From: Myxococcales bacterium UBA5297 | GTDB taxonomy: Bacteria; Myxococcota; Myxococcia; Myxococcales; UBA5297 | DNA: 26,060 nucleotides | Direction: 5' to 3' | NCBI GenBank assembly: GCA_002408385.1 | Contig: DHSB01000004.1 | Location: 77,384 to 103,443, forward strand | Part shown: in pieces, positions 14,383 to 17,025 of the stretch | Numbering within the stretch: the first letter of the stretch is position 1 | How the letters are laid out: the number at the start of each line of letters is the position of its first letter | The notes under the pieces: generated by a model | Told to the model about the DNA's origin: nothing | The model's database searches: none | What the model saw: the letters and a program-made list of their open reading frames with translations, nothing else | Program-made: the position numbers and the translations under genes

Positions 14383-15300
14383 ATGCGTGGAGGGATTTGG
14401 GTCGCGGGGGCGGCTTTTCTGCTCGGTGGCTGCGCGATGGTGCGCACGCCCTACGTGGCCGTGGCCGAGCACGAGCTGAGGCCGGCCGAGCAGGGCGCAA
14501 GGCCCGAGGCGCAGACCGAGCCGGACTTCGAGGTCATCGAGTCGAGGAGCGGGCCGGTCGCGAAGAGCCCGCCCGCGGCGGTCCGGGCCGACGACGAGAG
14601 TGTCTGGGAGGAGATCCCGCAGCCGGTCTGGGCCTGGCCCATCCAGCACCTCGAGGCGAGTCGCAACTTCCCCGACCCGTTCCTGGGCGAGGAGCTCTAT
14701 CCGGAGGTGTCGATAGGCTCGACGACCCTCGCGGCCCACGTCGATGCGACCGACGCGATCGAGTTCGCGAGCACCGTCGACCTGTCGCTCTACTGGCTCG
14801 CCGTCCGCTTCCCGGTCATCAGCACCCTGAACGGATCGCGCCCCGAGCCCTCGGTCGATTTCAACTTCAAGGTTCCGTTCGCCATCCCGGGCTCCGACAG
14901 CAACTGGCTCGGCGTTTCGTGGGGCGCCACCCTGAGCGACGCGAGGCCGAGCCTGGACGACAGCAGCCGCTTCGAGCTGCTCTACGCCTACGGTGGCGGC
15001 CTGCTCGCCGCGCAGTTGCGCGTCGGATACGGCTACCGAGAAAGCTTGCCGGGCCTCGGGCTGCGCCAGGGGCTGCTCTACGGTGCGCAGCTCGGTCTGA
15101 GCCTGGGCCGGGTGCAGCCGATGGTCGAGGTCGACGGGATGCGCTTGGTCGGGGGCGACGACCAGATCTCCATCTTGCCGGGCGTGCGCTTCCTGCCCGC
15201 GACGCTGCCGACCCTGCAACTCGGGGTGGCCGGGCTTGCCGTGCTCGGTGGCAACGACCGGTTCGGCGGGCTGGTCGAGATCAGCTACAACTTCCTGTGA
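14383..15300 (+). CDS. outer-membrane lipoprotein with predicted beta-barrel
   Basis: 305 residues. The signal peptide ends in the lipobox LGGC with Cys17, so it should be lipid-anchored. A Glu/Pro/Ala-rich linker runs to about residue 95. The remaining 200 residues alternate polar and hydrophobic residues in strand-sized stretches with many Gly and aromatic residues (for example VSIGSTTLAAHV, YAYGGGLLAAQLRVGYGY) and finish in VEISYNFL, the aromatic end typical of barrel proteins. This suggests a small outer-membrane beta-barrel, perhaps 8-10 strands; the function is unknown. The start ATG at 14383 follows a GGGGGCGG ribosome-site-like stretch. It is divergent from galK and stands alone on the plus strand. 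The group II intron remnant begins shortly after its stop. Confidence 0.78.
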   Translation: MRGGIWVAGAAFLLGGCAMVRTPYVAVAEHELRPAEQGARPEAQTEPDFEVIESRSGPVAKSPPAAVRADDESVWEEIPQPVWAWPIQHLEASRNFPDPFLGEELYPEVSIGSTTLAAHVDATDAIEFASTVDLSLYWLAVRFPVISTLNGSRPEPSVDFNFKVPFAIPGSDSNWLGVSWGATLSDARPSLDDSSRFELLYAYGGGLLAAQLRVGYGYRESLPGLGLRQGLLYGAQLGLSLGRVQPMVEVDGMRLVGGDDQISILPGVRFLPATLPTLQLGVAGLAVLGGNDRFGGLVEISYNFL

Positions 15301-15829
15301 CGGTCGAGAGTCGACGGCCTGGGCATCGCCCGGAAACTATGCGATCGGTCGCAGGTAGATGGGGTCCGGAGGGTTGAGGCAAATGGCCAGTCCGTAGCGA
15401 AAGCGAACCGGATGGTGGCGCTCGGAATCGACGAGCCAGCGAGGGACTGGCGAAGTCAGGAGTCGAGAGACCCTCGTGCTCGGGATGAGGGATTAGGTGT
15501 CAAATCCTGGGGCGGGTTCAGGGTGTGGTTACCGGACGGAATGGTCGGAATGTCTGACAGGTGATCCAGGGAGACCTCGCGGACCTCCCGTTAATAGCGC
15601 GCCCAGGGACGGCAAGACCTGCCGGAGGGCGCCCGGAGCCCGGGAACACGAGAGATAGGAAACAAGGCCCGTGTGGCGCGAGGAGTCAGAGGGCCCATCA
15701 GAGCGATGACGCCACGGCACCACGAACGCGGTGACCCGCGCACCAGCACGAGGGTGGGCGAGTCTGCCTTGTTGAAGAAGGTGGGCAGAGCGGCAAAGGG
15801 ACCCTGGGGAAGTGAATGGACGAGGACGG

Positions 15830-16003
15830 ATGAAGGAGATGGTAGCCGATGAGCTTGATCGCGCGAGGCGATTGGCTGAGAAGCCAGACCACACCCTGCG
15901 TATCGAGCGAGAGCGTGAAGCACTGCGCCTGGGAAACCATGCCTACCCGGTCTGGACCCCGCCCATGGTGGAGGCACAACTGGCCTTTGCCGCGAGAGCA
16001 TAG
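15830..16003 (+). pseudogene. short open frame in intron domain IV
   Basis: A frame of 57 residues beginning MKEMVADELDRARRLAEKP and ending EAQLAFAARA, preceded by AGGACGGATG. It occupies the place where an intron-encoded reverse transcriptase would start, but shows no RT, maturase or HNH motif and stops before domain V. It may be the scar left by loss of the intron protein, or plain domain IV RNA. I would not call it a functional gene. Confidence 0.35.
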
Positions 16004-16013
16004 CTTTCCTGGA

Positions 16014-16046
16014 GAGCCGTATGCGGGAAAACCCCACGTACGGTTC
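16014..16046 (+). ncRNA. group II intron domain V
   Basis: A 33-nt hairpin beginning GAGCCGTAT and ending GTACGGTTC. The lower stem has nine pairs, with the catalytic AGC triad intact (16015-16017). A two-base AC bulge (16036-16037) is in the usual place. The upper stem has a C-C mismatch (16024 with 16034) and a five-base GAAAA loop instead of a GNRA tetraloop, one base short of the usual 34. This suggests drift. Confidence 0.88.
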
Positions 16047-16049
16047 GGC

Positions 16050-16080
16050 GGGAGGGGTGGGAGACCGCCCCTGCCCCTAT
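16050..16080 (+). ncRNA. group II intron domain VI and 3' end, bulged G at branch site
   Basis: The stem pairs 16050-16060 with 16065-16076 around a GAGA loop (11 pairs). One base is unpaired on the 3' side, G16073, exactly 7 nt before the last intron base T16080. That is where the branch-point adenosine normally bulges. The intron ends in A-T, as the family consensus (AY) requires. Confidence 0.75.
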
Positions 16081-16089
16081 AGGGGTTCG

Positions 16090-17025
16090 CTATGCTGCCT
16101 CGGGCATCGGGCCAAGGGCCGGCAGCTTGAGCTCAAGCCGCTCGATCTCCTTCGGAGTGGCGGTGATCTCCTCGTAGCAGCTCGGATCGGACAGCACGCG
16201 CGTCACCAGCTTGTGGTTGAGCGCGTGGCCCGACTTGTGCGCGTTCAGGTGCCCGATGACCGGCATGCCGAACAGGAACAGGTCGCCGACCGCATCGAGC
16301 ACCTTGTGGCGCACGAACTCGTTCGGGAAGCGCAAGCCGTCCGGGTTGAGGATGCTGAAGTCGTCCACCACGATCGCGTTGTCGAGCGAGCCGCCTCGCG
16401 CCAGGCCTGCCCGCTTGAGCGCCTCGATGTCGCGCACGAACCCGAAGGTGCGCGCGCGGGCCACCTCGCGGTGGAAGGTGCGGTCGGAGAAGGCGAAGCG
16501 AAACGACTGGTCGCTGATGAGCGGGTGCTTGAAGTCGATGTTGCAGCTCACGGTGAACTGACCGGCCGGCGCGAGGCTCGCCTCTTTGTCGCCGTTGCGC
16601 ACGGCGACCTTGCGCCGGATGACCAGGAACTTCTTCATCCGCTGCTGCGGGACGATGCCCGCCGAGCGCACCAGGAAGGCAAACGGGGCCGCCGAGCCGT
16701 CCATGATTGGCACTTCGGGCCCGTCGAGCTCGACGCGCAGATTGTCGATACCCAGACCGCACAGCGTCGCGCACAGGTGCTCGACGGTGCCGACCCGAAC
16801 CCCGTCGCGTCCAAGCGAGGTCGCCAAGGCGGTGTCGACGACGTACCTGGCGCGCGCGGGGATCTCCCGGGAGCCCGGCACGTCGGTGCGGCGGAAGGTG
16901 ACCCCGTGGTTCTCCGGGGCGGGCTTGAGGGTGAGCCTGACTGGAGCGCCGGTGTGAAGCCCGACGCCGGAGCAGCGGACTTCGCTCTCGATGGTGCGCT
17001 GCCTGAGTTGATCGATTAGCTCCAT
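16090..17025 (-). CDS. lpxC: UDP-3-O-acyl-N-acetylglucosamine deacetylase
   Basis: The zinc amidase that makes the first committed step of lipid A synthesis, showing that the host makes lipopolysaccharide. It has 311 residues, close to E. coli LpxC. The active site is intact: Glu82 and His83 in TVEHLCATLCGLG, zinc ligands His240 and Asp244 in FVRHKVLDAVGDL, and catalytic His267 in NAHKSGHALNH. The start is the ATG at 17023-17025, with GGAGGAAC about a dozen bases upstream; a longer frame to 17115 is not family-like. Its stop is only 9 bases beyond the end of the group II intron, which lies on the opposite strand, so the intron sits in the lpxC 3' flank without breaking the gene. It is probably essential. 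Confidence 0.96.
   Translation of the reverse strand: MELIDQLRQRTIESEVRCSGVGLHTGAPVRLTLKPAPENHGVTFRRTDVPGSREIPARARYVVDTALATSLGRDGVRVGTVEHLCATLCGLGIDNLRVELDGPEVPIMDGSAAPFAFLVRSAGIVPQQRMKKFLVIRRKVAVRNGDKEASLAPAGQFTVSCNIDFKHPLISDQSFRFAFSDRTFHREVARARTFGFVRDIEALKRAGLARGGSLDNAIVVDDFSILNPDGLRFPNEFVRHKVLDAVGDLFLFGMPVIGHLNAHKSGHALNHKLVTRVLSDPSCYEEITATPKEIERLELKLPALGPMPEAA

What the first reader, a model, noticed from the sequence alone, without database searches (positions are those of the whole stretch)
16050..16080. Group II intron with G at the bulged branch-point position
Domain VI folds into an 11-pair stem with a single unpaired base on the 3' side, G16073, 7 nt from the intron end, where nearly all group II introns have adenosine. 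Either the intron has lost branching and is dead, or it splices by hydrolysis, or it uses a G branch. Domain V keeps its catalytic AGC triad.
Basis: partly seen in the sequence, partly recalled or inferred. Interest (0 to 1): 0.75.

Follow-up and report, generated by a model that had tools for sequence, protein, structure and literature searches.

The report
Dead remnant of a mobile intron
This is the broken leftover of a self-splicing mobile intron: it has lost its front end and nearly all of its enzyme gene, so the odd G where its relatives have an A looks like ordinary decay and not a new way of splicing.

Summary
In detail: window 16012-16080 is a group II intron domain V-VI (Rfam RF00029, 42.8 bits), and G16073 is unpaired (P = 0.999), 7 nt before the 3' end at 16080. 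The sequence around it is not a working intron.

All 114 matches (113 loci, 50 distinct sequences) to a domain V-VI pattern that leaves this position free have A there. C16034, which breaks a domain V pair, is also unmatched: G in 114 of 114.

In relatives the GTCCGTA motif of domain I lies 125-129 nt after a GTGCG start (19 of 20 motif rows; the other is a chance motif). In the window that start would fall inside the upstream reading frame, and 15299-15364 is a dispersed genomic repeat. A model of the intron's first 151 positions scores 66-158 bits in 8 other loci and 11.6 in the window. The protein gene is cut to 57 codons. The held genome has no reverse-transcriptase match at E <= 0.001 and no convincing intron 5' half elsewhere.

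Best reading: a 5'-truncated, ORF-deleted relic with a neutral A-to-G change. Hydrolytic or G-branch splicing is not supported. Interest is low.

The parts
15299..15364 (+). left part of a dispersed genomic repeat, at the stop codon of the upstream reading frame; not intron
   Evidence: 38 further matches elsewhere in the genome at E <= 1e-3, a lower bound since 40 of 172 candidates were scored; 28 of the 38 aligned
15361..15640 (+). remaining part of intron domain I, approximate limits (overlaps the repeat end by a few bases); about the first 100 nt, including the GTGCG 5' splice site, are missing
   Evidence: alignment to 8 relatives; GTCCGTAG at 15390 against 125-129 nt from the start in 19 copies; model R1
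15641..15829 (+). rest of domain I and domains II-III, approximate, not separately modelled
   Evidence: partial alignment only, e.g. the GAGTCAGAG block near 15683
15830..16003 (+). 57-codon remnant of the intron protein gene in domain IV; reverse-transcriptase and maturase domains missing
   Evidence: translation and a weak VWTxxM match, E 4.4; no Pfam domain; same stop and similar C-terminus as the C91 fragment
16014..16046 (+). domain V, AGC triad at 16015-16017; C16034 replaces a G and, by my reading of the domain V fold, breaks the pair with C16024
   Evidence: RF00029; fold; G at that position in 114 of 114 relatives' matches
16047..16080 (+). domain VI with unpaired G16073 at the branch position; intron 3' end at 16080
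   Evidence: tandem copies in L163

Best explanation
A degenerate remnant of a bacterial mobile group II intron lying between two convergent reading frames (an unnamed ORF ending at 15300 and lpxC ending at 16090). Shown: the 3' end with domains V-VI is there; the 5' splice site and about the first 100 nt of domain I were not found, and a dispersed repeat abuts the truncated end; most of the protein gene is missing; domain V carries a substitution at an otherwise constant base; the branch A is G. Inferred: the copy was made or left 5'-truncated (incomplete reverse transcription at insertion, or later deletion), can neither splice nor move, and the A-to-G change is neutral drift in a dead element.
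For: RF00029 match. A in 114 of 114 pattern matches, 50 distinct sequences. A in the same genome's C91 fragment, 86 of 96 bases identical. GTGCG start 125-129 nt before GTCCGTA in 19 of 20 motif rows; in the window this falls in the upstream reading frame. R1 model 66-158 bits in 8 of 14 other loci against 11.6 in the window. Dispersed repeat at 15299-15364. Protein gene reduced to 57 codons. C16034, 0 of 114 in relatives. No RVT_1 match at E <= 0.001 in the held genome, and the only 5'-half hit there is at chance level (14.8 bits, E 4.59). [quoted passage not shown]
Against: In a 1.9-kb search with filters off, the 5' model placed itself over 15261-15415 at 11.6 bits, E 0.0076; E is 0.49 in the larger search. 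By my reading the agreement lies mainly in the last part, which is present, but this is not a clean zero. The assembly is 95.55% complete in 255 contigs, and one search scored 150 of 2813 candidates, so a missing helper or 5' half cannot be fully excluded. The 57-codon frame is still open. A sequencing or assembly error at 16073 cannot be tested here.
Confidence: 0.94

Rival explanations
1. The intron is active and splices by hydrolysis or with a G branch.
For: G16073 is unpaired and the AGC triad is kept. Group IIC ribozymes can splice by hydrolysis without a branch (PMC7161350, passages seen including part of the abstract); no subclass was assigned here.
Against: No 5' splice site and no first ~100 nt found; no reverse-transcriptase match in the genome; none of 114 relatives' matches shares the G, and C16034 is unmatched too.
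Confidence: 0.01
2. The intron is split and splices in trans with a 5' half encoded elsewhere.
For: A 5'-less intron with a partly kept 3' portion is the arrangement one would expect of a trans-spliced 3' half.
Against: Search of the own genome with the 5' model gave only one chance-level hit, 14.8 bits, E 4.59, with 150 of 2813 candidates scored. Downstream, lpxC is convergent and matches profile positions 1-267 of 268, so no coding exon is seen after 16080 on this strand; whether the upstream ORF is a whole gene was not tested.
Confidence: 0.01
3. A variant of the dead-relic reading: the G is a copying scar. Reverse transcription ran through the 2'-5' branch of a half-inserted lariat, which would explain the 5' truncation and the branch mutation together.
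For: The window has both a 5' truncation and a change exactly at the branch position.
Against: The four other loci with at least 2.7 kb upstream where the 5' model found no good start (L125, L131, L138, L162) all keep A, as does the truncated C91 fragment. The window has another unmatched substitution as well (C16034), so drift suffices.
Confidence: 0.03

Closest known systems
Bacterial mobile group II introns starting GTGCG and ending CCTACCCCTAT or nearly so (e.g. copies in Pirellulaceae, Cloacimonadota and Massilia contigs, among L057-L169)
   Same: Domain V-VI sequence and domain VI register; the GTCCGTA block of domain I; same 3' end
   Different: The window lacks the GTGCG 5' end and nearly all of the protein gene; G for A at the branch position; C for G at 16034
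Truncated or inactivated group II intron copies, which PMC4424553 (passages seen) says are the majority of copies in bacteria
   Same: 5' truncation, lost protein gene, intergenic position
   Different: Nothing of substance; this copy has also changed its branch base
C91 fragment in the same genome (G000:C91:45424-45528)
   Same: 86 of 96 bases identical; nearly the same domain VI upper stem; same protein stop and similar C-terminus
   Different: Has A at the base aligned with G16073; its 3' tail is longer (CCTACCTACCCTTAT), and Rfam's alignment puts a second A, four bases on, at the branch place; keeps part of the maturase domain (PF08388); truncated at another point

Membership tests
Group II intron (sequence ancestry) | Domain V with catalytic triad, followed by domain VI | tested here: met
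   RF00029, 42.8 bits over cut-off 40; AGC at 16015-16017
Group II intron (functional) | GUGYG-type 5' end and complete domain I | tested here: not met
   No start found; expected place lies in the upstream reading frame; R1 11.6 bits against 66-158 in 8 of 14 other loci
Group II intron (functional) | Bulged branch adenosine in domain VI | tested here: not met
   G16073; A in 114 of 114 relatives' matches
Mobile group II intron | Intron-encoded reverse transcriptase/maturase | tested here: not met
   57-codon remnant without a Pfam domain; no RVT_1 match at E <= 0.001 in the genome
Group II intron (functional) | Splicing of the transcript | not testable with these tools
   Needs RNA
Structural subclass IIA, IIB or IIC | Subclass-specific domain I and V features | not tested
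   The truncated domain I was not folded as a whole; no subclass is claimed

The most novel reading that the evidence does not exclude
The branch-position G is the scar of reverse transcription through a lariat branch during an abortive, 5'-truncated insertion, so that truncated intron copies would record how they were inserted.
Probability: 0.03. Interest if true: 0.5.

Novelty: already known. Interest (0 to 1): 0.08.

Why it matters
It matters little beyond annotation. It shows that an unusual base at a catalytic position means nothing until the intron's other end has been checked. A working G-branched group II intron would be surprising, but nothing here suggests that this element is one.

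Tried and rejected
Distant blastn of 15366-16081 against plasmids gave only short matches near domain V (21 records, at most 10% of the query) and against phages no match. A phylum search of 195 genomes with the same stretch matched in 16 (the own genome included), and outside the own genome the matches were 49 bases or shorter. BLAST of the window region against the fetched relatives gave only one short match starting before about 15969, so a MAFFT alignment was used instead. The first script survey of the Rfam hits of other genomes was wrong, because loci with matches on the minus strand were read on the wrong strand; the sequences were printed again (30 loci, several of other intron types), but their branch bases were not scored. 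In one search the L065 piece was cut at wrong coordinates and the L098 piece ran past the intron end; those two folds are not used. Two automatic counts of the branch base mis-scored single loci (L100 called G, L138 and L166 not called; L074, L086, L137, L138 and L156 called C or T). A stricter count, written after reading the sequences and with the relatives' 3' ends listed in its pattern, gives A in 114 of 114.

Considered and rejected: an insertion with the whole repeat around the intron, as I first wrote in the notebook. Only the left part of the repeat is present; the right flank agrees with it in only a few bases by eye.

Full report
What is there. A scan against Rfam finds a group II intron domain V-VI at 16012-16080 on the plus strand (RF00029, 42.8 bits, cut-off 40). 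The AGC triad is at 16015-16017. The minimum-energy fold uses a slightly different lower helix (a G16052/G16073 mismatch and an unpaired C16049, -24.8 against -22.4 kcal/mol).

Is the G shared? A pattern that fixes most of domain V and the start of domain VI but leaves the branch position free was run over the GTDB contigs. All 114 have A at the branch position (sequences). Two earlier automatic counts agree except for single loci that they mis-scored. These are not independent samples: 50 sequences are distinct, and many are copies in one genome. The sister fragment in the window's own genome, C91:45424-45528, is identical in 86 of 96 bases and has A at the aligned base. Its 3' tail is longer, and Rfam puts a second A at the branch place. 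The window has another change not seen in the 114: C16034 for G, which by my reading of domain V breaks the first pair of the upper helix. The branch base was not scored in the more distant intron types of the phylum survey.

Where is the rest of the intron? Relatives start with GTGCG, shown by copies whose flanks diverge there and by two copies head to tail in L163 (CCCCTAT followed by GTGCGCC). The GTCCGTA block of domain I lies 125-129 nt after such a start in 19 of 20 rows that hold the motif; the twentieth, L131, is a chance motif. That script looked only at matches with at least 500 bases upstream, and those without the motif are not listed. In the window this block is at 15390, so the start should be near 15261-15265, inside the upstream reading frame 14383-15300. 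Intron-like sequence begins near 15361. The stretch 15299-15364 is a repeat with 38 further matches elsewhere in the genome, a lower bound because 40 of 172 candidates were scored (28 copies aligned). A covariance model of the first 151 positions, built from ten relatives, was run over the window and 14 other loci. It scores 66-158 bits in eight of the 14. Of these L066 was in the model, L071 is near identical to L066, and L103 and L106 are near copies of the model member L163, so L080, L111, L147 and L166 (66-137 bits) are the fairer controls. It gives 15.7 bits in L125, nothing in L002, L033, L131, L138 and L162, and 11.6 bits in the window. In a 1.9-kb search with filters off the window match at 15261-15415 has E 0.0076. 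It ends in the intron part that is present; its first half overlaps the upstream reading frame and the repeat.

The protein gene. The distance from the GTCCGTA block to domain V is 1665-1811 nt in 15 of the 19 copies and 476-828 nt in the other four (L062, L069, L103, L106). In the window it is 622 nt. An open frame of 57 codons remains (15830-16003), ending at the same stop as the C91 fragment. It has no Pfam domain, while C91 keeps part of the maturase domain (PF08388). Its match to relatives' N-termini is weak (VWTxxM, E 4.4). The held genome has no RVT_1 match at E <= 0.001, two partial maturase-domain matches, and only a chance-level hit to the 5' model (14.8 bits, E 4.59, 150 of 2813 candidates scored). 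The assembly is 95.55% complete.

Mechanism. Best supported is a dead, 5'-truncated, ORF-deleted copy. Truncation could come from incomplete reverse transcription at insertion or from later deletion; this is inference. With no 5' splice site, neither hydrolysis nor a G branch can remove it in cis, and no convincing 5' half was found for splicing in trans. The A-to-G change is most simply drift. A copying scar across a lariat branch would also put a change at this base, but the five other apparently truncated copies at hand (L125, L131, L138, L162, C91) all keep A.

Known context. [quoted passage not shown] Group IIC ribozymes are described as splicing by hydrolysis without their protein (PMC7161350, passages seen, including part of the abstract); no subclass was assigned here. 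Two paper searches were answered; I make no claim that G-branched introns are absent from print.

The branch-base count was redone and the numbers above were held against their calls.

Noticed in passing
window 15299-15364, and at least 38 other places in G000 (28 of them as L003-L030): A dispersed GC-rich repeat (about 60-130 nt); by eye some copies follow a stop codon closely (reading frames not checked). One 133-nt copy folds with z = -3.2. 2 of 194 other genomes of the phylum gave a match to that copy, both under 40 bases, with 4 candidates scored per genome. No Rfam match at this place in the window.
   Followed up: partly
L033 (G000:C103:91135-91211, minus strand): A third group II intron trace in the same genome, different in sequence: RF00029 at 35.1 bits, below cut-off, near a partial maturase domain at C103:91317-91466.
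   Followed up: no
L062, L103, L106: Relatives in Planctomycetota contigs with an intact GTGCG start and branch A but too little room for a full protein gene (GTCCGTA-to-domain V distance 476-639 nt): possibly helped in trans by full copies.
   Followed up: no
L163: Two long intron copies head to tail, one starting at the exact 3' end of the other.
   Followed up: no
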